Positions 2,293-15,357 of a DNA stretch of 16,094 nt are shown here, in pieces. Location: positions 1 through 16,094 of the forward strand of contig JAEUMX010000416.1 of NCBI GenBank assembly GCA_016791285.1. The letters are read 5' to 3'. Below the pieces are notes generated by a model that was not told the origin of the DNA, did not search any database, and was given only the letters and a program-made list of their open reading frames with translations. The first letter of the stretch is position 1. Each line of letters starts with the position of its first letter. The stretch comes from Burkholderiales bacterium. GTDB lineage: Bacteria; Pseudomonadota; Gammaproteobacteria; Burkholderiales; JAEUMW01. A program made the translations under genes and the position numbers.

Positions 2293-2805
2293 TCACATCC
2301 GCTCATCGCGCATCACGCCACCGTCGAGCGCGACCATGTCGAGCGTGATCTCGCCGAAGCGCAACACCTTGCCGCCGTACTGTTTGACGAACGCCTGCGC
2401 ATCTTCCTCGCGTGCGAACGATGCGAGCGTCGGGCCCATCGATCCCTGCCGGCTGCTGCCTTGCACGTAGAAGGCCGACTTGGCGTCGATCCAGTGGCCC
2501 CGCGGCTCGCTCCAGTCGGCCCGGCCCATGTCCTGGGTGAACACGGCGATCGCACGCTTCTGCTGCTCCGGCCGCAGATAGATCGAGATCATCTCCATCG
2601 TGTCGCAGAAGAAATCCGGCGGCGCGTGGTCGTACTGAATCTGTCCCTTCGGACCTGGATAGTCCGCCAGCAGCATGCCGTCCAGCGCGCACACCGTCTC
2701 CCGCGTGATGTCCTGCGGCGCCACGGTCGTCGCTCGCTCGCCGCATCCTGTCGTGATGAGAAGCGCGCAGCAGACGGCCGCCATGGCGAAACCACGGGCC
2801 TTCAC
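2293..2805 (-). CDS. nosL: NosL copper-chaperone lipoprotein
   Basis: Outer-face lipoprotein of 170 residues that binds Cu(I) and helps deliver copper to the NosZ CuZ site together with NosDFY. A short hydrophobic stretch ends in ITTGC with the lipidated Cys at about residue 21. The conserved NosL core follows: VCALDGMLLADYPGPKGQI (about residues 38-56), FFCDTMEM, VFTQDMGRADW, PRGHWIDAKSAFYV, and GSMGPTLASFAREEDAQAF. In the metal motif Cys39 and Met44 are present, while the CxxCGM form I recall for other NosL has Asp in the second Cys position (CALDGM). The GTG start at 2805 overlaps the nosY stop as GTGA and has GGAGG five bases upstream. The start could alternatively be the ATG at 2784, but that leaves a very short signal peptide. 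Confidence 0.92.
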   Translation of the reverse strand: MKARGFAMAAVCCALLITTGCGERATTVAPQDITRETVCALDGMLLADYPGPKGQIQYDHAPPDFFCDTMEMISIYLRPEQQKRAIAVFTQDMGRADWSEPRGHWIDAKSAFYVQGSSRQGSMGPTLASFAREEDAQAFVKQYGGKVLRFGEITLDMVALDGGVMRDERM

Positions 2806-3626
2806 TTGAACCTCCAGATCGCGAACGCAAGCGGTGCGACGATCCAGAGCACCATCGCGCCGACCATGAGCCAGGGATTCGCGAGCGCTTCCGGAAAAAC
2901 CGTCGCCAGACCATAGAGCCGCCGCACGTCCTCGAACCCGAAGACGTTGAGGATGCGAAAGATGTCGGCAGGGCTCAGCAGGAGCAGAAGCGGGAAGAAC
3001 CCGAGGTTCCACTTGCCTTCGGTCGCGACCAGCAGGCCGAGCAACAGGAGGTCGTAGATCAGGACGTAGAAGAACCACACGGCGATGGCGACGCCGCTTG
3101 CGCGCATCCGGTCCGTCGCCAGCACCGAGACCATGACGGCCAGGCTCAGGAACGCCCATCCGAGGAGTAGCGCCGTCGCGAGGAACGCCGCGTACTGATA
3201 CAGCGCGGCGAGGCCGATCTTGTGCGACAGCACGATGCCGACCAGTCCGAACCCGGCCAGCGTCGAGAAGGCGAGCGCCATGGCGAGACCGAGATACTTG
3301 CCGAGGAGCAGCTCGATGCGGGTGATGGGCAGCGACAGCAGCAGTTCCAGCGACCCCTTGTCGCGCTCTCCGACGATGGCGTCGTAGCCGAGGATGAGCG
3401 CGATCAGCGGCACCAGATAGATGACCAGGCTGACCAGGTTCGCGATCGTCGCGTCGATGCCGCGAAAGCCGACTGCACCCTGCTGCGCCGCCCCCAGGTA
3501 AGCGATCACCAGCGCGAAGACGGTGAACACTGCGGCCACCGCCAGCACCCAGCGGTTGCGGATGCGGTCCCAGAATTCCTTGCCGGCGATGACGCCGATC
3601 TGGCCGAACTCGAGGTTGGCGATCAT
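2802..3626 (-). CDS. nosY: NosY ABC-2 type permease
   Basis: Inner-membrane permease of 274 residues, the usual NosY length, which forms the membrane part of the NosDFY ABC system needed to build the copper-sulfide CuZ centre of NosZ. It starts with a short cytoplasmic segment containing EFWDRIRNRW, typical of ABC-2 permeases. About six hydrophobic helices follow (around residues 28-47, 63-83, 110-130, 137-160, 175-200 and 245-268). The GERDKGSLELLLSLPITR block after helix two is the conserved coupling region of this family. Its ATG overlaps the nosF stop as ATGA, and its own stop overlaps the nosL GTG, so NosF, NosY and NosL are translationally coupled. I am sure of the call from sequence and context. 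Confidence 0.95.
   Translation of the reverse strand: MIANLEFGQIGVIAGKEFWDRIRNRWVLAVAAVFTVFALVIAYLGAAQQGAVGFRGIDATIANLVSLVIYLVPLIALILGYDAIVGERDKGSLELLLSLPITRIELLLGKYLGLAMALAFSTLAGFGLVGIVLSHKIGLAALYQYAAFLATALLLGWAFLSLAVMVSVLATDRMRASGVAIAVWFFYVLIYDLLLLGLLVATEGKWNLGFFPLLLLLSPADIFRILNVFGFEDVRRLYGLATVFPEALANPWLMVGAMVLWIVAPLAFAIWRFK
2811..2815 (-). promoter_or_regulatory. Ribosome binding site of nosL
   Basis: GGAGG on the minus strand, inside the end of nosY, five bases ahead of the GTG at 2805. It supports the GTG as the true nosL start and translational coupling with nosY. Confidence 0.7.
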
Positions 3627-4537
3627 GTCGCGCGGTCGGTGTAGCCGAGGAAGACCTCCTCCAGCGAAGGCTCCTCGATGTGAATGTCGACGATCTCTTG
3701 CCCGAGACCGGAAAGCGCGTTGAGCACGTGCATCTTCTGCGTGCGTGCGCAGCGCAGGTGAGCGATCGAGCCCGCCACCCGGATGATCTCGGTGTCAGGC
3801 AGCACGCGGCGCAAGGCGCCTTCCGCGCCGTTGTGCAGCGTCACCTGGATCGCGAGCGGGAGATTCAGTGCCTCGCGCAACCCCTGCACCGTGCCGAGCG
3901 CGCGGATCCGGCCGGTGTCCATCAGTGCCAGCCGGTCGACGCGCTGCTGGATCTCCGCGAGGATGTGCGAGCTCAGGAGGGCGGTGGTCCCACTCTCACG
4001 CAGCGTGCGCACGATCTCGTAGAACTCGCGGATGCCCTGCGGGTCGAGGCCGTTCGTGGGCTCGTCGAGGAACAGGATGCGCGGTGATCCGAGCAGCGCC
4101 TGGGCGAACGCGAGCCGCTGCTTCATCCCCTTGGAGTATTCCCCCACCGGGCGGCGCGCGGCGGCGGCGAGCCCGACGCGGTCCAGCAGCGCCGGGCACG
4201 ACGCTTTGTCGGCGCCCTTCAGCCTGGCGAAGAACCGCATCGTTTCGAGCCCGGTGAGATGGTCGTAGAGCGCGACGCTCTCCGGCAGATAGCCGATCTG
4301 GCGGCGCACCCGGCGAAAGGCCTCGCCGCGCACCGGCTCGCCGCGGATGCGGATGTCGCCGGCGGTCGCGGGCAGCAATCCCAGCATCAGCTTGAGCAGG
4401 GTCGTCTTGCCCGCGCCGTTGTGCCCGATGAGCCCCAGCAGCTCGCCTTCGCGCACCGTCAGATCGACGCCATCCACGGCGCGCGTCTGTCCAAAGTGCT
4501 TGGCGATGCCGCGCACCTCAATGACGCTGCAGACCAA
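3623..4537 (-). CDS. nosF: NosF ABC transporter ATPase
   Basis: Cytoplasmic ATPase of 304 residues that pairs with NosY and powers the NosDFY complex in CuZ maturation. Visible motifs: Walker A GHNGAGKT (residues 38-45), a Q-loop region near IGYLPES, signature YSKGMKQR in the form common to NosF and ABC-2 exporters, Walker B ILFLDEPTNGLD with its catalytic Glu, and the H-loop SSHIL. A C-terminal regulatory part of about 90 residues follows. The start is a TTG at 4537, inside the end of nosD (20-base overlap), with GGAG eight bases upstream. It is chosen because no ATG lies near the conserved N-terminal strand (VIEVRGIAKHFG); a GTG at about residue 8 is possible but would cut that strand. The stop overlaps nosY as ATGA. 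Confidence 0.94.
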   Translation of the reverse strand: MVCSVIEVRGIAKHFGQTRAVDGVDLTVREGELLGLIGHNGAGKTTLLKLMLGLLPATAGDIRIRGEPVRGEAFRRVRRQIGYLPESVALYDHLTGLETMRFFARLKGADKASCPALLDRVGLAAAARRPVGEYSKGMKQRLAFAQALLGSPRILFLDEPTNGLDPQGIREFYEIVRTLRESGTTALLSSHILAEIQQRVDRLALMDTGRIRALGTVQGLREALNLPLAIQVTLHNGAEGALRRVLPDTEIIRVAGSIAHLRCARTQKMHVLNALSGLGQEIVDIHIEEPSLEEVFLGYTDRAT

Positions 4538-5780
4538 TCCACGTGCTCCAGTCGGAGTTGAACGGCCGCATGCGCGGTTGCCTGTCGATCACGCTCGGGC
4601 TGCGCAGCAGCGGAAACTGCCGGGAGATCATGCGCAAGGTCTGCACCGCCGGGCTGTGCAGCAGCAGCTTCACCAGCGGATGCTTCCAGGCGAGACGATC
4701 GATCACGTCGTTCGCCTCGTAGGGCACGTCGCCGATGCCGTTGGCGTCCGCGTCCCAGCCTGCGTAGTTGCTCCAGTAGTTACCCCGCTGCTTCCCCCAT
4801 TCCTCGTCGCGCGAGGCCACGTAGCGGATCTGGTTGTGGTTCTGGACGAAGTCGTTGCCTTCCACGTCGTTGTGAATCGACCCCGCCCACAGATGCACAC
4901 CGACGCGGTTGCCGATGACCAGATTGTTCCGGAGGGTGTTGTACTCCGCGTCGTAGATGAAGAAACCACGGCTGTTGCCGGCCACCACGTTGTTCTCGAC
5001 CAGCGAATCCTGAATCGTGCGCAGCATGATGCCGTGGTCCGTGTTGCCCCAGGCGCGATTGTTCCGCACCACCTGGTTGCGCACCTCCATCAGAGCGAGG
5101 CCACCGCGATTCAGGTACGACTCGTTGTCCTCCCACAGATTGTGGTAGGAGTTCATATAGTGCGTGCCGTAGCGCAGATGATGGATGCGGTTGCCACGAA
5201 ACACCGCATGGTGCGAGACGTCGACGTAGATGCCGTCGCGCGAAAAGCTGATGTTGTTGTCGACGATGCGTGCGCCGGTCGTGTTGTAGAGCTGGATGCC
5301 GTTTCCCCGCTGTGCCGAGGCCAGATCGCGTTTCCCCGCGATGAGGTTGCCGCTCACCTGAACGTCCTTCACCTTGTGCAGCCAGATGCCGAAGAGGTTG
5401 TACGCGAGATCGTTGTCGCGGACGACGAGACGATCGGAGCCGGGCTCGACGTAGACGCCGGCGTTCTGCGCACCGAGGTCCGCGCCGCTGTCGCGGATGA
5501 TCAGTCCTGCGATGAGTACATCCGTCGCTTTCACCCGGATCACGTTGCCGGTGTTGCCGCCGCTCAGGGTCGGCCGATTCACGCCGATGAGCGAGAGCGG
5601 CTTGTCGATGACGAGATGCTCCTCGTAGTTGCCGCGCTCGACCTTCACCGTGTCGCCGGGCTGCGCGGCTTCGATCGCCGCCGCGATGGACGCGCCGGGA
5701 CGCACCACGTGCTCGGCCGCGCCCGCGGCCGTGGCTGCCAGATACAGCCCGGCCAGGCTCAAGACGCGGCGCGCGTTCAT
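4518..5780 (-). CDS. nosD: NosD periplasmic beta-helix maturation protein
   Basis: Periplasmic protein of 420 residues with a Sec signal peptide (MNARRVLSLAGLYLAATAAG, cleavage probably near residue 21). Most of the rest is a run of repeats rich in N, G, V and I, such as VVRDNDLAYN, IVDNNISFSRDGI, VVRNNRAWGNTDHGI, LVENNVVAGNS and LRNNLVIGNRVGVH. These are the turns of a right-handed parallel beta-helix (CASH/NosD repeat). The conserved late block GNYWSNYAGWDADANGIGD identifies NosD. It acts with NosF and NosY in supplying sulfur/copper for CuZ of NosZ. Its ATG overlaps the stop of the preceding small membrane-protein gene as ATGA. The open frame continues upstream of this ATG, but that part lies over the membrane protein gene and has no signal peptide. 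Confidence 0.95.
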   Translation of the reverse strand: MNARRVLSLAGLYLAATAAGAAEHVVRPGASIAAAIEAAQPGDTVKVERGNYEEHLVIDKPLSLIGVNRPTLSGGNTGNVIRVKATDVLIAGLIIRDSGADLGAQNAGVYVEPGSDRLVVRDNDLAYNLFGIWLHKVKDVQVSGNLIAGKRDLASAQRGNGIQLYNTTGARIVDNNISFSRDGIYVDVSHHAVFRGNRIHHLRYGTHYMNSYHNLWEDNESYLNRGGLALMEVRNQVVRNNRAWGNTDHGIMLRTIQDSLVENNVVAGNSRGFFIYDAEYNTLRNNLVIGNRVGVHLWAGSIHNDVEGNDFVQNHNQIRYVASRDEEWGKQRGNYWSNYAGWDADANGIGDVPYEANDVIDRLAWKHPLVKLLLHSPAVQTLRMISRQFPLLRSPSVIDRQPRMRPFNSDWSTWIGLQRH

Positions 5781-6238
5781 TGGTACAACCAGCGCAGCGA
5801 CGGCATGCTCTGCAGCAGATCGAGTACGCCGAGCAGGTGCATCGCGATGTAGAGCAGGCTGCCGAGCAGCACGTTCTTGAAGGACACGTAGCAGATCATG
5901 TCCATCAAGTTCGCGGTCCGGTAGCTGCGGCCCCACCACGGGCCGTCCTTGACATAGGGCTTGGATTGCATGCGCACCATGACCTCGAACACGCTCCAGC
6001 CGACCCACCAGGCGATCACCACGGGTGCCCCGATGCGACCCGCGGCGCCGAGCAGCCAGACGATCGCGATCACCACGGCGGCGGCGACGCTCAAAGCCAG
6101 CAGGAAGCGCTGGCGACGAAAACCGCGCCGGCTCCACGGCCACAGGTGATCCCAGATGTCGCTCGCCACCCACGCCAGCAGATTCTCGCGCTGGGCGTAG
6201 TGGGGGAAAACCGGGGTCGTCTCGTCGGCGTCGCTCAT
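5777..6238 (-). CDS. Unrecognised small three-helix membrane protein in the nos operon
   Basis: A 153-residue protein that I cannot place in a named family. The N-terminal 45 residues are soluble, rich in aromatic residues (NLLAWVASDIWDHLWPW), and end in a basic stretch RRGFRRQR. Three hydrophobic segments follow at about residues 45-66, 70-90 and 111-140. The loop between the second and third (QSKPYVKDGPWWGRSYRTANLMD) is charged and aromatic. By the positive-inside rule the basic stretch before helix one suggests a cytoplasmic N-terminus. No metal-binding Cys motif is seen: the only Cys lies in the third helix (ICYVSF), and two His are near the N-terminus plus one in helix three. It sits 19 bases after nosR and overlaps nosD by ATGA, so a role in NosR electron transfer or NosDFY maturation is likely but not shown. 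Confidence 0.85.
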   Translation of the reverse strand: MSDADETTPVFPHYAQRENLLAWVASDIWDHLWPWSRRGFRRQRFLLALSVAAAVVIAIVWLLGAAGRIGAPVVIAWWVGWSVFEVMVRMQSKPYVKDGPWWGRSYRTANLMDMICYVSFKNVLLGSLLYIAMHLLGVLDLLQSMPSLRWLYQ

Positions 6239-6257
6239 GGAAGTTCTCTTGGCGTGA

Positions 6258-8426
6258 TCACCGGGACTGCGCGCCGAGACTCGCCACCGGTTTGATCGGG
6301 ATGTAGTAACCGTCCGCCCCGATCGGCGTCAGCGGCAGCCCGCCTTTCGTGCGGCGCTTGCGCTCCTGTACCAGCGGCGGGCAGGCATGCGGGTCATAGT
6401 AGAGAATCTGACAGTCCAGGCACAGCAGGCATTCGCGCTGGTCGATCGCGCCTTGGTCGTCGATCGCCTGGGGGCCGCAACCGGCCTGACAGGCATGGCA
6501 GGTCGTGCACTCCGCCTTGCGCTTCAAGCCGAACCAGCGGAACGTGGTGGGCATCGCGAGCCCGGCGCCAAGCGCGCACAGATACTTGCAGAACGGCCGC
6601 TCGGTGAAGAGCGACACGCTGAACAATGCGATCCAGTACAGCATGAACGGCCACGACCGGTTCCATACGCCGACCAGGAACGTGGTCTTGAACGGCTCCA
6701 CCTCGGCCAGCTTCTCTGCCGCGCCCATCGAGTAGAACGATACGGCGACCAACCCGGCGAGAATCCAGTATTTGATCCATTTGAGCCGGTTGTGCAGCTT
6801 CAGCGGGGGCTGGAACTGGAAGCGCTTGAGCGGAGTCGCGCGCGCCAGCTTGTAGGCGATCTCGGACAGCGAGCCGAACGGGCACAGCCAGCCGCAGAAG
6901 AGCCCCCGCCCCCAGACGAACGTGGTGAGGATGAGGAACCACCAGAAGATGAAGACGATCGGGTCGGACAGGAACAGCTCCCACTTCCACTGGAACACCA
7001 GCGAGTGAAACCAGGTCAGCACGTGGGTGATGCTTGGCTGCGCCATGGAATAGAATCCGACGAAAAAGATGCTGGCGCTCCACAGCACGTACTTGGGGTA
7101 CGACACCCAGCGCTTGTCCTTGCGCGTGGAACGGCGCACGAGCTGGTCGCGCAGCCCATAGACCGTCGCCGTCGCCGCGAGCAGCAGGATGAACACCGCG
7201 ATCTCGATCTTCTTGGCTTTCCAGATCGCGAACCAGGCCGCTTCCGGTTTTTCCACCACCGGCCGGCCGTCTTCCAGGTAGCGTGCTGGCAGCCAGTATT
7301 CGCGGTCGAAGCTGACGAAGCTCTTCGCGCCGCTTTGCCGGTCGACCTTGTTGGCGAGAAAGGCGAGGCGCCACGGGTAGGCGGCGCTGAATTCGGCGCC
7401 GTGTAGGATGAAGATGCCCGATTCACGGAACCGCGGCGCGCCCGCCGCCTCGATGCGATAAAGGTTGCGGTAGTCGGTATCTCGGAAGGTGAAGCTCGCC
7501 ACGTCTTGCTCCACCTGGATGCGATCGTAGATGCCGCCGCGCACGAAGCCGGAGCCCTTGAACGAGGCCAGGCCGTTGGCGACGATGAAGATGGCATGAT
7601 CGCCCGGCTTCAGGTCGGCCATCAGCCGCCGGTAGTCGCGCTCGCCCAGCAGGTTGATGCCGACGTTGGGCGCGTTGAGATAGCCGAAGTAGAGATCGAT
7701 GTACGGCTCGCCGGTCTCCGGCAGGTCGAGCTCGCGCGGGCGCACCACGAGGTGCCCGACGCTGCCCTCGGCGAGCAGCGCGTTCCAGTCGAGCTTGTCG
7801 GCCACGGCGGTGAACTGCGCTTGCGGCTTGGGGCGCGCCTTGATGATGCCGACTTGGCGGGCGATCTCGTAGGCGCTGCGCATCACCGCCTGGTTCTCGG
7901 CGATCACGGTCACGGTGGCACCGCTGATCGCGTCCACCCCGATGTAACCCTCCTCGGCGCGGCCCTTGCCGATCTCGACCTTGTCGCCGGCGCGGCGGCC
8001 AACATACTGCTGGACGAATCGCGTCAGCTCCGTTTCCGGGATGCCGACCAGCAGGATCGGCTCGCTGTGCTTGAGGATGCGGATGCCGGCGATGGTGCCG
8101 CGCGTATTCATGCCGATCAGGGTAACGACCGGCTTGCCGGAGTAGGCCGGGATGTCCACGACGTCGGTGGACAGGAACACGTAGCCGACGAGCTGACGCT
8201 CGCCGTCGACCGTCTTGTACGCCTCGACATAGGGTGGTCGCCCCTTGCGCGGTGAGAAGCTGTCCGCGCCTGGCATCACCTCCCGACATGGCGCATACGC
8301 GCACAGATCGGGATCGGTCTCGAGTTGCTGCGGCAACTCGGTGTCGTAGATCGTCGCCTGCGCCGAGCCGGCGCAGGCGAGCAGCAGCAGACACACGCTG
8401 CGCAGCAGAAAAGCCAGGGCGGGCAT
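6258..8426 (-). CDS. nosR: NosR, flavo-iron-sulfur membrane protein supplying electrons to NosZ
   Basis: A 722-residue polytopic protein of normal NosR length. Order of parts: signal/anchor segment (residues 1-24); a periplasmic FMN-binding domain with DAISGATVT, where Thr171 of SGAT is the expected covalent FMN site; a transmembrane core from about residue 415 with two NapH-type motifs CGWLCPFG and CKYLCALGAG; and a C-terminal cytoplasmic ferredoxin part with CTTCHACQAGC and CLLCLDC (plus a Cys in DPHACP) for two 4Fe-4S clusters. The usual Pro after the fourth Cys of the first cluster is Gly (CGPQAI). NosR takes electrons from the quinol pool towards NosZ and is also needed for nos expression in some species. 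The ATG at 8426 lies 41 bases after nosZ, so nosR follows nosZ here. The ribosome binding site is weak. Confidence 0.96.
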   Translation of the reverse strand: MPALAFLLRSVCLLLLACAGSAQATIYDTELPQQLETDPDLCAYAPCREVMPGADSFSPRKGRPPYVEAYKTVDGERQLVGYVFLSTDVVDIPAYSGKPVVTLIGMNTRGTIAGIRILKHSEPILLVGIPETELTRFVQQYVGRRAGDKVEIGKGRAEEGYIGVDAISGATVTVIAENQAVMRSAYEIARQVGIIKARPKPQAQFTAVADKLDWNALLAEGSVGHLVVRPRELDLPETGEPYIDLYFGYLNAPNVGINLLGERDYRRLMADLKPGDHAIFIVANGLASFKGSGFVRGGIYDRIQVEQDVASFTFRDTDYRNLYRIEAAGAPRFRESGIFILHGAEFSAAYPWRLAFLANKVDRQSGAKSFVSFDREYWLPARYLEDGRPVVEKPEAAWFAIWKAKKIEIAVFILLLAATATVYGLRDQLVRRSTRKDKRWVSYPKYVLWSASIFFVGFYSMAQPSITHVLTWFHSLVFQWKWELFLSDPIVFIFWWFLILTTFVWGRGLFCGWLCPFGSLSEIAYKLARATPLKRFQFQPPLKLHNRLKWIKYWILAGLVAVSFYSMGAAEKLAEVEPFKTTFLVGVWNRSWPFMLYWIALFSVSLFTERPFCKYLCALGAGLAMPTTFRWFGLKRKAECTTCHACQAGCGPQAIDDQGAIDQRECLLCLDCQILYYDPHACPPLVQERKRRTKGGLPLTPIGADGYYIPIKPVASLGAQSR

Positions 8427-8439
8427 GGTTCGCCTGGGT

Positions 8440-8464
8440 CGGCGGCCCTGCGCGTAGACCGCCG
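8440..8464 (-). repeat. Inverted repeat between nosZ and nosR
   Basis: CGGCGG (8440-8445) and CCGCCG (8459-8464) form a perfect 6-bp GC stem with a 13-base loop, starting three bases after the nosZ stop in the transcript. No T-run follows, so it is not a full intrinsic terminator. It could shield the nosZ mRNA 3' end or weakly attenuate reading into nosR. In such a GC-rich sequence a chance stem is quite possible. Confidence 0.4.
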
Positions 8465-8467
8465 CGC

Positions 8468-10426
8468 TCAGGTTTCGACGAACATCCGGCCACGCATCTC
8501 CAGGTGCAGGGCGTGGCAGAAGTGGGTGCAGTAGAACCAGAACACGCCCGGCTTGTCGGCCGTGAAGGTGACCGACTTGGTCTCCTGCGGCCCCACCGCG
8601 AAGTTGATGTCGTAGTTCGCCAGGCCGAAGCCGTGGTGCAGATCCTCCACCTTGTCGTGATTGGTGAGAATGACCGTGACCTCGTCGCCCTTCTTGACGG
8701 TGAACTCAGTCGGCGTATACGTCGGCGCGATCGAGACGATGCGCACCGTGACCTTGTTGCCCTTGCGCTCGACGCCTGCCTGCGCGGTGTCCTTCACCGC
8801 GATCGGCGAGTCGTCCATGTTGTAGATCTGCTTGGTCTTCAGGATATCGCGGCGGATGATGATCGCATCGTGCGGCTCCGGGTGCGCGGTGCCGTCGTGG
8901 ATGAGCGCCATCTTCTCGCCGGTGATGTCGATCAGTTGCTCGGTCTCGACGTGCATCGGCCCGACCGGCAGGAAGCGATCCTTGGAGAACTTGTTGCCGG
9001 CGTTGAAGAACTTGCCGTCGGCCTCCCTGGTCTCGCCCATCGAGGCGTAGCTGTGTCCGGGCTGGTAGTGGACATCGATGCGATCGACCACCGGCTGCGC
9101 GCTCTTGTCACCCTTGTACTGGGCGATCGCCTTCTCCACGTTCCACTTGACCACCTGGCTGTCGAGGAAGAGGGAGGTATAGGCATTGCCCTTGTTGTCG
9201 AAGCCGGTGTGCAGCGGTCCCAGGCCGATCTCCGGCTCGGCGACCACCGCATCGCGCGGCTCCTTCACCTCGCCGTTGAACCATTTCAGCACGAGCTCGT
9301 GAGAGATCACGGTCGCGGTCGGCGACAACTTGCCGGAGCACACGTAGTACTTGCCGTCCGGCGTGGTGTTCACGCCGTGCGGATTCTTGGGTACCGGCAC
9401 GTAACAGGTGACGGCGGTCTTCGGATCACTGTTCGCGGCCTGGGTCCCGTCCACCACCGGCAGCTTGGAACCGCCGAGGGTGAAGGTCTTGCCCGCCTTG
9501 ACCGCAGCCTCGACGCGCTCGACGTCGAAGAACACGCAGGCGTCGCGCTCGGCCGACATCATGTCGGCGAACACGGCGCCGTTCTCGGTGTTGTATTGAT
9601 TCAGACACACCAGCTTGCCGTCGTAGGAGGTCGCACACAGATCCATATTGCCGTCGATCTTCACCTGCCAGCGCGGCTCCATGGTCTCGGCATCGACGCA
9701 GGTGAGCAGGCAAGCGTACTTGGCGTGATCCTTGATCTCCGGCCCCTTGTTGGTGAACGGAACGTGGAACTCCGACCCGCAGAACACCCGCGTGGTGTGA
9801 TTGATCTTCGGATCGACCGGATCGCGCCGGTCCGGGAAGATGCCGTGGAAGCCCTGCACGTTCGGGACCTCGACGATCTTGTCGCACTCCATGTAGTCGC
9901 CACGGATGCGCGCCATGCGGTTGTTGAGCTTGTCGTTGGTCCAGAAGTATTTGCCGTCGTAAGTGCCGTCGGTATAGGAACCATGCACGTGGTGGGTGTC
10001 GCCAGTGCAGTACTTCAGGCTGCCGTCGGGCTTCGTGCCGAGGATCTTCTTGGATTCGTTGGTGATGCCCCAGCCAGCCATCGGATCCATGTTGAACACC
10101 GGGATGCGCTTGAGGGTACGCCCGGAAGGCACGCCGTAGATGCGCAGCTCACCCGAGTGGCCACCGCTGGAGACCAGGTAGTACTCGTCCAGCTGACCCG
10201 GAGCGACTTCAGACGACACATGGGCCGCGGGCGTGACCGGTTTTGCCGGAGCGGTTTCCGACGCGGCCTTGGGCGCGGCTTTCTCCGACGAGTCGCCACA
10301 AGAGGCGAGCCCCACCGACAAACCCGCCCCCGCAAAACCGACTGCTGCCGCGGTGCCCAGAAACTTGCGTCGTCCCGCATCCTCCGGAACGACTTTATCC
10401 TCGATCGGTTGTCTATCGTCCGCCAT
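8468..10426 (-). CDS. nosZ: NosZ nitrous-oxide reductase (Tat-type, clade I)
   Basis: Multicopper enzyme reducing N2O to N2 in the periplasm, 652 residues. A Tat motif RRKFLG (residues 19-24) and hydrophobic stretch come first. An LASC lipobox at 40-43 and an Ala/Pro/Lys-rich linker (44-75) follow. The seven-bladed propeller carries all seven CuZ histidines: His145 and His146 (DTHH), His194 (GFHG), His350 (NPHG), His406 (PLHT), His458 (PGHS) and His519 (EPHD). The C-terminal cupredoxin domain has the CuA ligands His598, Cys633, Cys637, His641 and Met644; position 635, Trp in Pseudomonas stutzeri NosZ (CSWFC), is His here (CTHFC). The ATG at 10426 has AGGAGG five bases upstream; an upstream in-frame TTG was not used. 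It is the first gene of the nos unit, behind its own FNR-type promoter. Confidence 0.98.
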   Translation of the reverse strand: MADDRQPIEDKVVPEDAGRRKFLGTAAAVGFAGAGLSVGLASCGDSSEKAAPKAASETAPAKPVTPAAHVSSEVAPGQLDEYYLVSSGGHSGELRIYGVPSGRTLKRIPVFNMDPMAGWGITNESKKILGTKPDGSLKYCTGDTHHVHGSYTDGTYDGKYFWTNDKLNNRMARIRGDYMECDKIVEVPNVQGFHGIFPDRRDPVDPKINHTTRVFCGSEFHVPFTNKGPEIKDHAKYACLLTCVDAETMEPRWQVKIDGNMDLCATSYDGKLVCLNQYNTENGAVFADMMSAERDACVFFDVERVEAAVKAGKTFTLGGSKLPVVDGTQAANSDPKTAVTCYVPVPKNPHGVNTTPDGKYYVCSGKLSPTATVISHELVLKWFNGEVKEPRDAVVAEPEIGLGPLHTGFDNKGNAYTSLFLDSQVVKWNVEKAIAQYKGDKSAQPVVDRIDVHYQPGHSYASMGETREADGKFFNAGNKFSKDRFLPVGPMHVETEQLIDITGEKMALIHDGTAHPEPHDAIIIRRDILKTKQIYNMDDSPIAVKDTAQAGVERKGNKVTVRIVSIAPTYTPTEFTVKKGDEVTVILTNHDKVEDLHHGFGLANYDINFAVGPQETKSVTFTADKPGVFWFYCTHFCHALHLEMRGRMFVET

Positions 10427-10431
10427 TCTCG

Positions 10432-10437
10432 CCTCCT
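10432..10437 (-). promoter_or_regulatory. Ribosome binding site of nosZ
   Basis: AGGAGG, a full match to the anti-Shine-Dalgarno complement, five bases before the ATG at 10426. It fixes the start against the TTG at 10444, which lies upstream of the site, and suggests strong nosZ translation. Confidence 0.85.
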
Positions 10438-10530
10438 GCTCCAAGGTTTCTATTTGTCAGGACTGCTCGCCTCGCGGCGATTCGGGTCGTGCGCCGCGCG
10501 GTAAAACGGTTCTCCAATCGACCACTGGCT

Positions 10531-10647: not shown

Positions 10648-12204
10648 CTAGTGGCTCGTCCCTTCCGATCGCGTGATCTTGTTCCAGACGTTGTATTTGC
10701 CCACCGGCTTTCTCATCGGCAGGCGCTTCACCTCTTTCAGGGTCTCGGTGTCGTAGATCACCAGCGCGCCGTCCTGCTCCCAGATCGACACCAGCGCGTA
10801 ACGCCCGTCGCGCGTGAACTCGACGTGCGCGGCGGTCTTGCCCGGTGCCGGGCGCAGCGTCTTCGCGACCTCCAACGTGCGCTTGTCGATGAGCTGCATC
10901 GTGTCCTTGGCGGGGCTCATCATCGCGTCCACCCAGGCATAAGGTGTGACCTCGTGGCTGCGCATGAAGAACGCGGGGCCGAGCGTGGGGATTTCTTTCA
11001 CCACCTGCCAGCTCTGCATGTCGATCACGCTCACCACACCCTCCTTGAGATTCGGCGTCGCCAGCACGCGCTTGCCCTCATGCTCCCAGGAGATGCCCGA
11101 GCCCAGGTGCGGCAGCCCCGGCAGCGGCACGTCCGCGATCTTGCGCCGGACGTCGAGGTTCACCACCTGCCCCTTGCCGCCTGCACGCGCGGCGCCGATG
11201 ACGTAGGCGTAGCTCGGATCGAAGAAGAAATCGTCCAGCACTTCGTCGAGCGGCGTGCGGCGAGCGTTGAGCTTGCCCGGCGCCGCGACGCCTTCGCCCA
11301 GCTTGTAGTCGTGTACGAGTCCGTCGTAGATCGGCGCGGCGCTGTCGTCGTAGGAGATCTCCCAGATCTCGGGCACGTCCTTCAACGCGGCGACGAAGCT
11401 CTTGCGCGGCGCCGCATCGTACACCGCCGACACCCGCGAGCTCTTGCCCTGGCGGTCGCGCACCTCGATCACCTTGACGAGCGAGAGGTCGCGCGCGTCC
11501 AGCACCACCAGCGTGTGCGGTAGGTAGTTCGCCACCATCACGTAGCGGCCGTCGCCGGACACGGCTACGTTGCGCGTGTTGAGACCGGCGCGCACCTCGG
11601 CGACCGTCTGCAAGCTCCAGAGATCGAACTTGGTCACCCAGCCATCGCGCGAGCCGAAGAACACGTAGCGCCCGTCCGGCGTGAACTTCGGCCCGCCGTG
11701 CAGCGCATAGCGGGTCGGCACGCGCGCGAGCGGCTCGAAGCGATCGCCGTCCAGGATGGTGACGTGATGATCGCCCGCCTCCACCACCACGAAGAGGTTC
11801 ATCGGATCGGCGTCGAACTGCGGGCGGTCGGGCAGGCTGCCGGGCGTGACCGTCTCGATGCGGGACGCCTTGATCTCCGCCTCGCCCCATCGTGGCGGCG
11901 GCTCGACCTTCGCGTAGACGAAGGCGGCGAGCGCTTCGATCTCCGCCGCGGAGAGCTTGTCCGCGAAGCCCGGCATCTGTGTCGCCGCACGCCCCTGCGC
12001 GATCACCGCGACCGCGTCGGCACGCTTCAGGCGCTCGAGGTTCTCGGGCAGCAGCGCGGGCCCCATGCCCCCGAAGCGGTCGGCGCCGTGGCAGCTCGCG
12101 CAGTGCGTGGCGTACAGAGCCTGCGGGTCCGGCGCCGCGAAGCTGGACGTTGCCACCAGCGCGCACAGCACCAGCGCCCGCCGCGCCCACGACGAGGTCC
12201 GCAT
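10648..12204 (-). CDS. nirN: NirN, c-type cytochrome/d1-domain dihydro-heme d1 dehydrogenase
   Basis: Periplasmic protein of 518 residues that oxidises dihydro-heme d1 to heme d1, the last step for the NirS cofactor. It has a Sec signal peptide (residues 1-24, ending SSFAAP), a small cytochrome c domain with CASCH at 35-39 and a likely Met ligand in QMPGF, then an eight-bladed d1-type propeller (FTPDGRYVFFGSRDGWV, VSGDGRYVMVANYLPHT, FTRDGRYALVSIWEQDG). The end GKYNVWNKITRSEGTSH is of the NirN/NirS type. I prefer NirN over the nitrite reductase NirS because the gene lies at the end of a heme d1 operon, the cytochrome part is short, and the protein is about the length of known NirN. The ATG at 12204 follows the nirJ stop by 10 bases; a GTG one codon earlier is equally possible. 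No clear Shine-Dalgarno is seen. Confidence 0.88.
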   Translation of the reverse strand: MRTSSWARRALVLCALVATSSFAAPDPQALYATHCASCHGADRFGGMGPALLPENLERLKRADAVAVIAQGRAATQMPGFADKLSAAEIEALAAFVYAKVEPPPRWGEAEIKASRIETVTPGSLPDRPQFDADPMNLFVVVEAGDHHVTILDGDRFEPLARVPTRYALHGGPKFTPDGRYVFFGSRDGWVTKFDLWSLQTVAEVRAGLNTRNVAVSGDGRYVMVANYLPHTLVVLDARDLSLVKVIEVRDRQGKSSRVSAVYDAAPRKSFVAALKDVPEIWEISYDDSAAPIYDGLVHDYKLGEGVAAPGKLNARRTPLDEVLDDFFFDPSYAYVIGAARAGGKGQVVNLDVRRKIADVPLPGLPHLGSGISWEHEGKRVLATPNLKEGVVSVIDMQSWQVVKEIPTLGPAFFMRSHEVTPYAWVDAMMSPAKDTMQLIDKRTLEVAKTLRPAPGKTAAHVEFTRDGRYALVSIWEQDGALVIYDTETLKEVKRLPMRKPVGKYNVWNKITRSEGTSH

Positions 12205-12214
12205 CACGAAAACG

Positions 12215-13411
12215 CTACGCCGCGCTGCGTTGTCTCGTGTAGGGCGTGACCTTGATCCGCTCGCGCTCGCTGGTGATGCCGAGCTCGTGATCCTCGAGGT
12301 AGCAGCCCGGATCTTCCTGCCATGGATCGCCCGTCAACTGCCGCGCGCGGGTGCGCGTGTTGCCGCCGCAGATGGAGAAATAGGCACACTCGCCGCAGCG
12401 CCCCTTGATGACGCGCGGGCTCGCCTTCAGTCCCGCCATGATCGGATCGGACACGTCGCGCCAGATCTCCGAGAAGGGTCGCGCGCGAACATTGCCCAGG
12501 CTGTAGTCCCACCAGTAGGTGTCGGGGTGGACGTTGCCGAGGTTGTCGATGTTGGCGACGTTCACGCCCGATGCGTTGCCGCCCCATTGCGCGAGCTTCG
12601 CCCCCACGTGGTACGCACGCATCGGAAAATGGCGGCGCACCCAGCGCAGGAAATAGACGCCGTCGGCATCGTTGTTGCCGGTGACGAATTCGTTGTGCAC
12701 GCCGCGCTCCCTGCAGTCCCAGCAGACGTCGAAGAGCAGGTCCATGGCCTCGCGGGTCATGGCGTGATGGGCGTCGTCCTTGCGGTTCACGTTGCCGCGG
12801 CCGGCGTAGTTCAGATGCGAGAGGTAGAACTTGTCGATGCCTTCGGCTTCGATCATCGCCAGCAGCCACGGCAGGTCGGCGTAATTGTCGGCGGTCAGCG
12901 TAAAGCGCACGCCCACTTTCACGCCGGCATCGCGGCACAGCCGCAGCGCGCCCATCGAGGCATCGAAGGCGCCGGCGCGGCGCCGGAAGCGGTCGTGCGT
13001 GTCGCGGCGTCCGTCGAGGCTGATGCCGACGTAATCGAACCCGATGTCGACGATGCGATCGATGTTCGCGGCGTCGATCAGGGTGCCGTTCGTGGAGAGG
13101 CCGACGTAGAAGCCCATCGCCTTGGCGCGCCGCGCGATGTCGAAGATGTCGGGACGCAGCAGCGGCTCGCCGCCCGACAGGATCAGCACCGGCACGCGGA
13201 ACGCCTTGAGATCGTCCATCACCGAGAACACTTCGGACGTGCCGAGCTCGCCGGGGAAGTCGTGGTCGGCGGAGACGGAGTAGCAGTGCTTGCAGGTGAG
13301 ATTGCAGCGCCGGATCAGGTTCCAGATCACGACCGGCCCGGGCGGATTACGCCTGGGTCCGATCGGGGTCGGCGCGACGATCTCCTGCATGAATTGCGAT
13401 ACGCGAAACAT
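12215..13411 (-). CDS. nirJ: NirJ radical SAM enzyme of heme d1 biosynthesis
   Basis: Cytoplasmic radical SAM enzyme of 398 residues acting on 12,18-didecarboxysiroheme, where it removes propionate side chains on the way to heme d1. The SAM-cluster motif CxxxCxxC is at Cys36, Cys40 and Cys43 (CNLTCKHC), followed by the SAM-binding GGEPLLRPD and the LSTNGTLID strand. The C-terminal SPASM/twitch part has CGECAYFSIC and a further Cys in EDPGC (about 339-370) for a second cluster. The block QWGGNASGVNVANIDNLGNVHPD is typical of NirJ and related heme-remodelling enzymes (AhbC, AhbD). In a heme d1 operon, directly after nirH, the NirJ call is secure. The ATG at 13411 has a very strong AGGAGG six bases upstream. 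In the order known from Pseudomonas aeruginosa nirE would follow; here nirN follows at once. Confidence 0.95.
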   Translation of the reverse strand: MFRVSQFMQEIVAPTPIGPRRNPPGPVVIWNLIRRCNLTCKHCYSVSADHDFPGELGTSEVFSVMDDLKAFRVPVLILSGGEPLLRPDIFDIARRAKAMGFYVGLSTNGTLIDAANIDRIVDIGFDYVGISLDGRRDTHDRFRRRAGAFDASMGALRLCRDAGVKVGVRFTLTADNYADLPWLLAMIEAEGIDKFYLSHLNYAGRGNVNRKDDAHHAMTREAMDLLFDVCWDCRERGVHNEFVTGNNDADGVYFLRWVRRHFPMRAYHVGAKLAQWGGNASGVNVANIDNLGNVHPDTYWWDYSLGNVRARPFSEIWRDVSDPIMAGLKASPRVIKGRCGECAYFSICGGNTRTRARQLTGDPWQEDPGCYLEDHELGITSERERIKVTPYTRQRSAA

Positions 13412-13417
13412 CCCTCT

Positions 13418-13423
13418 CCTCCT
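13418..13423 (-). promoter_or_regulatory. Ribosome binding site of nirJ
   Basis: AGGAGG within a purine-rich run, six bases before the ATG at 13411. It fills the 14-base gap after nirH and rules out the far upstream open frame as the true nirJ start. Confidence 0.8.
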
Positions 13424-13425
13424 CG

Positions 13426-13911
13426 TCAGCCCGCGATGCGCAGGCCGGTCTTTTTCAGTATGCGCGTGCTGTAGAGCACGTCGTGCGCACGGCAGTGCGC
13501 GCCCAGCAGGGTCGCGATGCGTGCCACGCGGTCTGCGACCTCGGCGCGATCGCGCCCGTGCACCATCGCGAACAGATTGTACGGCCACTGCGGCGCATGC
13601 CGCGGCCGCCGGTAGCAGTGGGTGACGAAGTCGAGCGCGCCAACCGCCGCGCCGAGCGCGTCCACGCGCCCGTCCTCGACATCCCACACGCTCATGCCGT
13701 TCGCCGTGTAGCCGATCGCGTAGTGGTTCGGGACCACGCCCATGCGGCGGATCACCCCGCTATCGAGCATGCGCTGGATGCGCGTCTTGACCTCGTGCGC
13801 GCTCATGCCGACACGCCGCGCCAGCTCGTCGTACGGACGCGGCACGAGCGGGAGACCCGCCTGGGTGGCGACGATCAACCTGCGGTCCGCCTCGTCCACC
13901 GCGTCGCTCAC
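13426..13911 (-). CDS. nirH: NirH, siroheme decarboxylase subunit (Lrp/AsnC-type)
   Basis: Protein of 161 residues with an N-terminal winged-helix part (DEADRRLIVATQAGLPLVPRPYDELARRVG) and a C-terminal ferredoxin-like RAM fold, the architecture of the NirDLGH/AhbAB siroheme decarboxylases. These convert siroheme to 12,18-didecarboxysiroheme in the cytoplasm and are not DNA regulators despite the AsnC look. The block CYRRPRHAPQWPYNLFAMVHG (99-119) is the signature of the NirL/NirH half, and YSTRILKKTGLR closes the protein. The GTG start at 13911 overlaps the nirG stop as GTGA. The frame is open further upstream, but that part lies over nirG and has no family similarity. A partner NirG or NirD-type subunit is needed, and nirG lies directly upstream. 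Confidence 0.9.
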   Translation of the reverse strand: MSDAVDEADRRLIVATQAGLPLVPRPYDELARRVGMSAHEVKTRIQRMLDSGVIRRMGVVPNHYAIGYTANGMSVWDVEDGRVDALGAAVGALDFVTHCYRRPRHAPQWPYNLFAMVHGRDRAEVADRVARIATLLGAHCRAHDVLYSTRILKKTGLRIAG

Positions 13912-14363
13912 GCAACGAGCCTCATCTCGACGAAGTACTCCCGTTCCTTGGGGAACGCGAAGACGGGAAACCCTGTCTCGCGCTCGATGCGGACGATGGC
14001 CTGGTCGATCTGCGCCGGCGTCTCCGTTGCCAGTACGAACCACATGTTGAGACGGTGCTCGCGGCGATAGTTGTGCGCGACCTCAGGCAGTGCGTTCACC
14101 CGTTCGGCCACGCGCTCGAAGTCCGCCTCCGGCACGGCCAGCGCGGCAAGCACGAACGCGCCCCCCATGCGCTCGACCTGGAACATGGGTCCGAAGCGCG
14201 TCAGGATCTTTCGTTCGAGCATGCTTTCGATGCGTGCGATGAGCGTCGCCTCCTCGAGTCCCAGCGTTTCCGCTGCCGCACGGAAAGGTTCGTCGGCGAT
14301 GGGGAAGCCGCCCTGCAGCGCATTGACGATGCGACGGTCGACCGCGTCCAGTTCTTCACCCAT
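13908..14363 (-). CDS. nirG: NirG, siroheme decarboxylase subunit (Lrp/AsnC-type)
   Basis: Protein of 151 residues of the same winged-helix plus RAM-like architecture as its neighbours. The block VAHNYRREHRLNMWFV (about 95-110) is the NirD/NirG signature, with His97 and the REH triplet in the region expected to face the tetrapyrrole. It works with NirH and NirDL on decarboxylation of siroheme. The ATG at 14363 overlaps the end of nirDL by 8 bases and places the family's conserved first helix (DAVDRRIVNALQGGFPI) right at the start. Earlier in-frame codons lie over nirDL. Its stop overlaps the nirH GTG, so the two subunits are translationally coupled, consistent with a fixed ratio. Confidence 0.9.
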   Translation of the reverse strand: MGEELDAVDRRIVNALQGGFPIADEPFRAAAETLGLEEATLIARIESMLERKILTRFGPMFQVERMGGAFVLAALAVPEADFERVAERVNALPEVAHNYRREHRLNMWFVLATETPAQIDQAIVRIERETGFPVFAFPKEREYFVEMRLVA

Positions 14364-15357
14364 GCGCCGGCTCCGACTTGCGTTCGGATTCGAGATAGCG
14401 CGCCCCGCGCTGCTTGAAGCAGCGCTGCGAGAACAGCACCGCCGACGGGTAGCCGCCAACACCGCAGCGCACCCGGATCGCCTCGATCTCCCGCTCCACG
14501 TCGACGCGGCGGCGGCCGTGCACCATGCAGAAAAGGTTGTACGGCCAGTCCGGCAGCGCGCGCGTACGCCGGTAGCACAGGGTCACGAGCGGTTCGCGGG
14601 CGAGCCCCACGCCGACTTCGTGCACCACGTCGTCCGGCACGTCCCACACGCACATGGCATTCGCCTGATAGCCGAGCTCGCGGTGGCGCACGATCACGCC
14701 GAAGCGTTTGATGAGACCGCTGGCGAGCCACCCTTCGATCAACTCGAGCGCCATCCCTTCCGTCAGCCCGGCGCGGGTGGCGAGCTTCGCGAACGGACTG
14801 GGCGTGAGCTCGAGCCCGTCCTGCAGCGCGGCCAGGAGACGGCGTTCGATCGCGGGAATCTGACAGCCCATGTCGGCGTGCGCCGCGCACGCGACCCCTT
14901 CCGTCTTGCCCTGACCGGCAAGATCGAATCCGAGGTCGATGTGAAATTCCTCGAGCAGCCGCAGCCGGATGATGGGCAGCGCGGTGTCGGCTTCGATGCG
15001 GCCGAGCAGGTCGGCAAGCCGCGCAGGCGACGCAGCGGTGGCGACGAACCAGAGGTTGAAGCGATGCTCGCGCTGATAGTTGTGGTTCACCCCGGGGTAG
15101 GCGCTGATGCGCGCGGCCACTTCCTCGAGCCGATCGGGCGGCGCGGCAACGGCGGCGAGCGAGCCTGCGCCGATCCGGTTCGGTGCGAACACCGCACCGA
15201 CCCGACTCACCGCGCCACGCGCCTGCAACTCGCGCAACGCACCCAGCACCTCGTCCTCGGTCGCGCCGACCCTGTCACCGATCGACCGGAACGGTTGCGG
15301 CACCAGCGGAAAGCCGCGCTGGAAGCTGTTGAGCAGGCTGAACTCGAGTCGCTTCAT
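14356..15357 (-). CDS. nirDL: NirDL fusion, two-domain siroheme decarboxylase
   Basis: A 333-residue protein made of two complete decarboxylase units. The first (about 1-145) is NirD-like with NHNYQREHRFNLWFV (91-105). The second (about 168-320) is NirL-like with CYRRTRALPDWPYNLFCMVHG (261-281). A linker of about 20 residues containing GKTEGVACAAHADMGC joins them. Each unit has an Lrp/AsnC-type winged helix followed by a RAM-like fold. A single NirDL chain is known in some denitrifiers, while Pseudomonas aeruginosa has separate nirD and nirL. The protein takes part in removing two acetate carboxylates from siroheme in heme d1 synthesis. The ATG at 15357 overlaps the nirF stop as ATGA. The C-terminal tail (ESERKSEPAHG) is charged and beyond the fold. 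Confidence 0.92.
   Translation of the reverse strand: MKRLEFSLLNSFQRGFPLVPQPFRSIGDRVGATEDEVLGALRELQARGAVSRVGAVFAPNRIGAGSLAAVAAPPDRLEEVAARISAYPGVNHNYQREHRFNLWFVATAASPARLADLLGRIEADTALPIIRLRLLEEFHIDLGFDLAGQGKTEGVACAAHADMGCQIPAIERRLLAALQDGLELTPSPFAKLATRAGLTEGMALELIEGWLASGLIKRFGVIVRHRELGYQANAMCVWDVPDDVVHEVGVGLAREPLVTLCYRRTRALPDWPYNLFCMVHGRRRVDVEREIEAIRVRCGVGGYPSAVLFSQRCFKQRGARYLESERKSEPAHG

What the first reader, a model, noticed from the sequence alone, without database searches (positions are those of the whole stretch)
5777..6238. Unnamed three-helix membrane protein locked between nosR and nosD
This 153-residue protein has no match to the known Nos proteins (R, Z, D, F, Y, L, X, C, G, H) that I can recognise. 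It lies 19 bases after nosR, and its stop overlaps the nosD ATG as ATGA, so it is co-made with NosD. Its aromatic, Trp-rich N-terminus, basic stretch and three helices suggest an inner-membrane partner of NosR (electron transfer) or of NosDFY (CuZ assembly).
Basis: partly seen in the sequence, partly recalled or inferred. Interest (0 to 1): 0.7.

Follow-up and report, generated by a model that had tools for sequence, protein, structure and literature searches.

The report
Split-off membrane module of NosR
A small unnamed membrane protein in a bacterial laughing-gas-reducing gene cluster turns out to be a detachable tail piece of the electron-feeding protein NosR, joined to it in some relatives and made separately in others, which gives a concrete lead on how these bacteria power removal of a greenhouse gas.

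Summary
The ORF is real (minus strand, 153 aa, 19 bases after nosR, ATGA overlap with nosD) and highly conserved. No Pfam, NCBIfam or PDB entry matches it, but it is no orphan: in Cupriavidus, Acidovorax, Rhodoferax and other betaproteobacteria the same ~140 residues form the C-terminal end of NosR itself (about 870-890 aa instead of 720). Of 41 loci examined, 17 carry it fused to NosR, 23 (window included) as a separate gene between nosR and nosD, and one unlinked in a genome that still has nosZRDFYL. Fused and split forms need three switches on the NosR tree; presence follows NosR (3 changes) better than NosZ or NosY (4) or NosD (6). In 399 genomes it occurs in 16, all among the 40 with clade I nosZ. 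Best explanation: a three-helix accessory module of NosR, beside its cytoplasmic iron-sulfur domain, helping electron delivery to NosZ. The association is well supported; the biochemical step is inferred. A NosDFY role stays a rival: one relative has NosR, module and NosD in one frame. A fused AlphaFold2 model failed (pTM 0.44).

The parts
5777..6238 (-). Separate gene for the NosR C-terminal membrane module (153 aa; stop included)
   Evidence: homologous to the C-terminal ~140 aa of fused NosR proteins
6258..8426 (-). nosR (722 aa; FMN_bind + Fer4_5), ends at the short-form C-terminus ...GYYIPIKPV...
4518..5780 (-). nosD (420 aa), ATG overlaps the module's stop (ATGA)
8468..10444 (-). nosZ, clade I (TAT-dependent) N2O reductase, upstream of nosR
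   Evidence: TIGR04244 961.8 bits against a cut-off of 625
6134..6148 (-). HLWPW motif (residues 31-35); His31, Leu32, Pro34 invariant in 29 of 29
6044..6109 (-). predicted TM helix 1 (residues 44-65)
5963..6028 (-). predicted TM helix 2 (residues 71-92), with invariant W78, W81, S82, E85, R89
5933..5962 (-). KPYVKDGPWW loop (residues 93-102), positively charged, predicted cytoplasmic
5831..5908 (-). predicted TM helix 3 (residues 111-136), with invariant D113, Y117, V118, K121, N122
3623..4519 (-). nosF (ABC ATPase)
2802..3626 (-). nosY (ABC-2 permease)
2303..2805 (-). nosL
   Evidence: PF05573
1248..2306 (-). apbE/nosX flavin transferase (would flavinylate NosR; inference)

Best explanation
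The ORF encodes a detachable C-terminal membrane module of NosR. SHOWN by sequence: in one set of betaproteobacteria it is the last ~140 residues of NosR, in another a separate gene directly after nosR, and other nosR-bearing genomes lack it. INFERRED: (1) the separate protein binds NosR and rebuilds the long form. (2) Topology: N-terminus cytoplasmic beside NosR's C-terminal [4Fe-4S] domain, three helices, C-terminus periplasmic. (3) Its invariant face, mostly cytoplasmic (HLxP, K-G-WW-R, D-Y-V-KN), packs against NosR's iron-sulfur domain or membrane helices and stabilises or tunes electron passage from the quinol pool or a cytoplasmic donor through Fe-S and FMN to NosZ. Confidence about 0.85 for 'NosR module', about 0.5 for the electron-delivery role.
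For: Fusion: 12 of the 16 domain-bearing genomes have it in the NosR frame; C. necator H16 NosR, 873 aa, carries it; searching with the C-terminal 144 residues of that protein gave 494 proteins at E <= 1e-3 among 2062 candidates, the 120 listed being 644-897 aa long, those with a name called NosR/NirI family, regulatory protein NosR or 4Fe-4S binding protein. Repeated switching: fused/split needs 3 changes on the NosR tree and 3 on the module tree, starred branches forcing 3 and 2. Context: 18 of 18 loci have nosZ-nosR-ORF-nosD (L016's contig ends within nosD). Co-occurrence: 16 of 16 module genomes are among the 40 of 399 with NosZ over the TIGR04244 cut-off, 0 of the other 359. In G628 the module lies on another contig than a complete nosZRDFYL set lacking it. 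Presence/absence: 3 changes on the NosR tree, 4 NosZ, 4 NosY, 6 NosD. Patristic distances over 38 loci: r 0.80 with NosR, partial 0.50, the highest of six genes. Natural swap: L073, close to the window in the NirN-like protein (92% over the part held), NosD (88%) and NosF (84%), has another nosZ (68%) and nosR (70%) and no module. Topology: loop 93-110 has 4.8 K+R against 1.2 D+E on average; NosR's Fe-S domain is cytoplasmic and its FMN domain periplasmic in P. stutzeri (PMC7660919, passages; PMC5928378, passages); L088 continues from helix 3 straight into NosD, whose Pfam family is described as periplasmic.
Against: The module is dispensable in evolution: 24 of 40 clade I nosZ genomes lack it. 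No interface was obtained (fused model pTM 0.44). No experiment names it. The module's data reject every other gene's tree, NosR's included (AU p 2e-7), although NosR's is the least bad (delta logL 275 against 349-489), so its history is not simply NosR's. On the NosR tree the starred branches alone force only 1 presence change, and L066's place has support 35, so the two losses are not certain. The N-terminal segment is charge-balanced (4.6 K+R, 4.9 D+E) and does not by itself favour a cytoplasmic side. A scan for NosR sites that differ between module-bearing and module-lacking proteins showed mainly ancestry. Linked genes co-diverge anyway; NosF comes second (r 0.74, partial 0.32).
Confidence: 0.72

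Rival explanations
1. It is a NosD/NosDFY partner used in copper-site (CuZ) assembly, or a tether that brings NosDFY to NosR.
For: Directly upstream of nosD in the linked split loci; ATGA-type overlap here, in split L009 and in fused L036, L038, L039; one relative (L088) has NosR, module and NosD in a single 1277-aa open frame; partial distance correlation 0.32 with NosF, second to NosR.
Against: 17 of 41 loci fuse it to NosR; only one of these also runs into NosD. Presence needs 6 changes on the NosD tree against 3 on NosR's. Partial distance correlation 0.05 for NosD and -0.26 for NosY. In the eight Thauera loci the gap to the first nosD ATG is 91-164 bases where found.
Confidence: 0.15
2. 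It is only a passive membrane anchor or stability factor for the long NosR, with no part in electron flow.
For: Presence is patchy; no cofactor motif (one Cys in the ORF, not conserved).
Against: 21 positions invariant in 29 of 29, many polar, aromatic or charged, more than a passive anchor would need (judgement).
Confidence: 0.2
3. It is a transcriptional regulator, as databases name many homologues.
For: Names given by sources: 'transcription regulator' for many of the named homologues. A nosR deletion in P. denitrificans lost copper-responsive nosZ transcription (PMC7660919, passages).
Against: No DNA-binding family match; three membrane helices; the label most likely spread from NosR's old annotation as a regulator (inference).
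Confidence: 0.03

Closest known systems
Long-form NosR of betaproteobacteria, e.g. Cupriavidus necator H16 NosR/NirI family protein WP_011154163.1 (873 aa)
   Same: The C-terminal ~140 residues are homologous to the ORF (43.6% identity over residues 7-139), same place between the NosR Fe-S end and nosD
   Different: There it is part of NosR; here it is a separate gene
Canonical short NosR (P. stutzeri / P. denitrificans type)
   Same: The window's NosR (722 aa) matches the NCBIfam NosR model over profile positions 22-680 of 680
   Different: That model has no such module; window NosR scores 630.6 bits, under the model's cut-off of 1000
NapH / PceC (RdhC) membrane Fe-S proteins
   Same: Share a membrane core with NosR (PMC5928378, passages)
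   Different: The ORF itself matches no NapH or other family model

Membership tests
NosR/NirI family | FMN-binding domain | tested here: not met
   0 Pfam families for the ORF at E <= 1; present in the neighbouring NosR
NosR/NirI family | CX3CP motifs and C-terminal [4Fe-4S] clusters | tested here: not met
   One Cys in 153 residues, not conserved in fused relatives
C-terminal module of long-form NosR | Homology to the C-terminal extension of NosR/NirI proteins | tested here: met
C-terminal module of long-form NosR | Located directly downstream of nosR | tested here: met
   window; 40 of 41 loci incl. window linked (23 split, 17 fused), 1 unlinked
C-terminal module of long-form NosR | Physical binding to NosR | not testable with these tools
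   Fused AlphaFold2 model too poor (pTM 0.44); no complex prediction offered
NosC / NosG / NosH (haem c or ferredoxin subunits) | CXXCH or four-cysteine Fe-S motifs (recalled) | tested here: not met
   One Cys in the ORF
NosY / ABC-2 permease | ABC-2 membrane profile | tested here: not met
   0 Pfam families for the ORF; NosY itself hits PF12679 at 1.4e-40
Bis-His cytochrome b membrane anchor | At least two conserved histidines | tested here: not met
   One invariant His (H31) in 29 of 29
Any solved fold | Clear structural match in PDB | tested here: inconclusive

The most novel reading that the evidence does not exclude
The module is the bridge of a NosR-NosDFY station: it ties the electron-delivering NosR to the copper-loading NosD so that NosZ is matured, reduced and re-activated at one membrane site; in one lineage the bridge is covalent on both sides (NosR-module-NosD). 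A variant is that its invariant H31/E85/K121/D113/Y117 set forms an extra quinol-binding site on the cytoplasmic side of NosR.
Probability: 0.15. Interest if true: 0.8.

Novelty: new variant of a known kind. Interest (0 to 1): 0.52.

Why it matters
How electrons reach N2O reductase is still open; NosR is the leading candidate donor. A conserved module, fused or free, in common betaproteobacterial denitrifiers (Thauera, Azoarcus, Aromatoleum, Cupriavidus, Acidovorax, Rhodoferax relatives) gives that question a direct handle: a 140-residue piece that can be removed, split or joined without touching the FMN or Fe-S domains. It would also correct the database label 'transcription regulator' and warn that P. 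stutzeri NosR is not the whole story.

Tried and rejected

Rows dropped before counts: L068 (NosR cut by the contig end) and L071, L074 (no NosR on the contig) are not in the NosR tree; L091 has no NosR at its site; L020 and L077 repeat L003; L019, L021-L034 and L078-L085 are short copies of loci counted once under other numbers; L086 is the discarded G926. L015 and L016 lack genes at contig ends and are not among the 38 loci. L064 and L065 come from one genome and have identical NosR pieces. Of the five plasmid records two were fetched; the annotation of the C. metallidurans one is empty, and its fusion rests on the open frame.

Full report
OBSERVATION. The window reads, on the minus strand, nosZ (8468-10444), nosR (6258-8426), the ORF (5777-6238), nosD (4518-5780), nosF, nosY, nosL, apbE/nosX and nnrS. 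The ORF starts with ATG 19 bases after nosR and its TGA overlaps nosD's ATG. It has 153 residues. Pfam and NCBIfam give no family, PDB none. It is a real gene: 152 homologues at E <= 1e-3, the window's own included, and 623 at E <= 0.01 with a 24-sequence profile among the 7998 candidates scored.

CONTEXT. One scan of genome contigs gave 18 loci (Rhodocyclales MAGs, Thauera, Azoarcus, Aromatoleum, Pseudothauera and kin). In 18 of 18 the order is nosZ-nosR-ORF-nosD; L016's contig ends within nosD, and no nosL was found on L015. Searching those 18 whole genomes found one copy each, plus one meaningless E 0.69 hit in G009.

THE KEY RESULT. A profile search of 399 genomes of the same order found 16 with the sequence. 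In 12 of them it lies in the same reading frame as nosR, at its 3' end, with open frames of 880-1000 codons; in 4 it is a separate gene. The junction is clear: short NosR of the window ends ...GYYIPIKPV..., long NosR continues ...GYFIPIHPV-(linker)-DPRMPTDPVAPP...DHLWPWS... (L036), and separate genes of Thauera and Azoarcus relatives start much like that linker, e.g. MVDPRMVTDPVEPPYA (L007). Cupriavidus necator H16 pHG1 has the fused form, 873 aa, named NosR/NirI family protein. Searching proteins with only its last 144 residues gave 494 hits among 2062 candidates; the 120 listed are 644-897 aa, with names from Polaromonas, Rhodoferax, Acidovorax, Diaphorobacter, Hydrogenophaga, Undibacterium, Roseateles and others.

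HOW WIDE. A class sample: 6 of 369 genomes, one already known, three new fused, one new split, one unlinked. A phylum sample: 5 of 398, four known and one false. In these searches at most 10 candidates a genome were scored, so the rates are lower bounds. The tally used below is 41 loci: 23 split and linked (window included), 17 fused, 1 unlinked. The loci are not a random sample: 18 came from a search with the window's own protein.

TIE TO N2O REDUCTION. In the same 399 genomes, 40 have NosZ over the clade I cut-off; all 16 module genomes are among them and none of the other 359 gave a module match. The 24 nosZ genomes without it were examined at 25 loci: 12 loci have a distant NosR (35-38% identity to the window's), 11 a closer one (56-70%, L068 cut by its contig end), 2 show none (L071, L074); a filter-free search of their open frames gave nothing better than E 1.0. 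In the eight module-free nos loci read (L064, L066, L067, L069, L070, L072, L073, L100) no module stands between nosR and nosD. The unlinked copy, in G628, lies between a GGDEF-type protein and an enoyl-CoA-hydratase-like ORF (my reading of the translations) while the genome's nosZRDFYL cluster on another contig lacks it. This exception weakens 'always adjacent' but keeps 'always with nos'.

PHYLOGENY. On a NosR tree of 62 loci built without the module's columns, presence/absence takes 3 changes, consistent with one gain and two losses (L066, L073), though well-supported branches alone force only one and L066's place is weak; fused/split takes 3 changes, and starred branches force 3 for the fused group. 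Presence takes 4 changes on NosZ, 4 on NosY and 6 on NosD. The module's own tree also needs 3 fused/split changes, with starred branches forcing 2. Whether these are fusions or fissions is not decided. Distances over 38 loci correlate best with NosR (0.80; partial 0.50), next NosF (0.74; partial 0.32). The module's data nevertheless reject all other trees, NosR's least strongly. L073 is instructive: its NirN-like, NosD and NosF proteins are 84-92% identical to the window's, yet its NosZ and NosR are only 68% and 70% and it has no module, as if nosZ-nosR(-module) had been exchanged as a block.

ANATOMY AND TOPOLOGY. AlphaFold2 of the ORF: short helix 20-32, long helices 44-65, 71-92, 111-136. 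Over 86 sequences, loop 93-110 carries on average 4.8 K+R and 1.2 D+E, the short loop 66-70 0.6 and 0.3, the N-terminal segment a balanced 4.6 and 4.9. By the positive-inside rule (recalled) loop 93-110 is cytoplasmic, hence the N-terminus too and the C-terminus periplasmic. This fits NosR, whose C-terminal iron-sulfur domain is cytoplasmic (PMC7660919, passages), and fits L088, where helix 3 runs directly into NosD, whose Pfam family is described as periplasmic. Of 21 positions invariant in 29 of 29, 15 lie by this topology on the cytoplasmic side or the inner part of a helix (H31, L32, P34, R89, K97, G99, W101, W102, R107, A109, D113, Y117, V118, K121, N122) (the sorting is mine). There is one Cys, not conserved, and one invariant His, so no haem c, Fe-S or bis-His haem b site in the module itself.

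MECHANISM. NosR is held to pass electrons to NosZ and bears Fe-S clusters and a covalent FMN (PMC12052999, PMC7660919 and PMC5928378, passages). The module adds three helices next to the Fe-S domain with a conserved cytoplasmic face. The simplest reading is an accessory subunit or domain that docks there and supports or tunes NosR's electron input. That it binds NosR is inferred from fusion and co-divergence; what it does to electrons is inferred from place and conservation. A bridge to NosD is the boldest reading left open.

KNOWN OR NEW. The fused proteins are in databases as NosR or 4Fe-4S proteins; the separate ones, where named, mostly as hypothetical protein or 'transcription regulator'. 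Ten literature searches listed no paper on the module (see Tried and rejected); they cover open-access papers only. It is best filed as a new variant of a known kind: a long or split NosR.

Noticed in passing
L088:4745-8575 (+): One open frame of 1277 codons holds NosR, the module and NosD; helix 3 of the module passes into ...VALVSPAAAATLQVAAGDD..., which looks like NosD's signal-peptide cleavage region. Single case; not checked for sequencing error.
   Followed up: partly
window 4518-10444 against L073: Likely block exchange of nosZ-nosR(-module) between close relatives: NosD 88%, NosF 84% identical, but NosZ 68% and NosR 70%.
   Followed up: partly
L091:6894-7385 (+): Unlinked copy of the module beside a GGDEF-type protein gene in a nos-positive genome.
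   Followed up: yes
window 10648-12207 (-): 519-aa protein with a cytochrome c domain and a cytochrome d1 haem domain (PF02239), NirN-like, upstream of nosZ and next to heme d1 genes (NirJ and siroheme decarboxylase-type) at 12215-15357.
   Followed up: partly
window 6258-8426 (-): The window's NosR and a fused NosR (P0191) match the NCBIfam NosR equivalog over nearly its full length but score 631 and 589 bits against a cut-off of 1000, so these NosR proteins miss the automatic name.
   Followed up: no
L098, L099 (G374:C5:25445-27049): A second NosR-like protein in G374 (43-50% identity in two pieces within one 607-codon frame), away from its nos cluster.
   Followed up: no
L004:12180-13814, also L006-L008, L010, L011, L013, L018: One or two extra NosL-like proteins (28-41% identity) downstream of nosL.
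   Followed up: no
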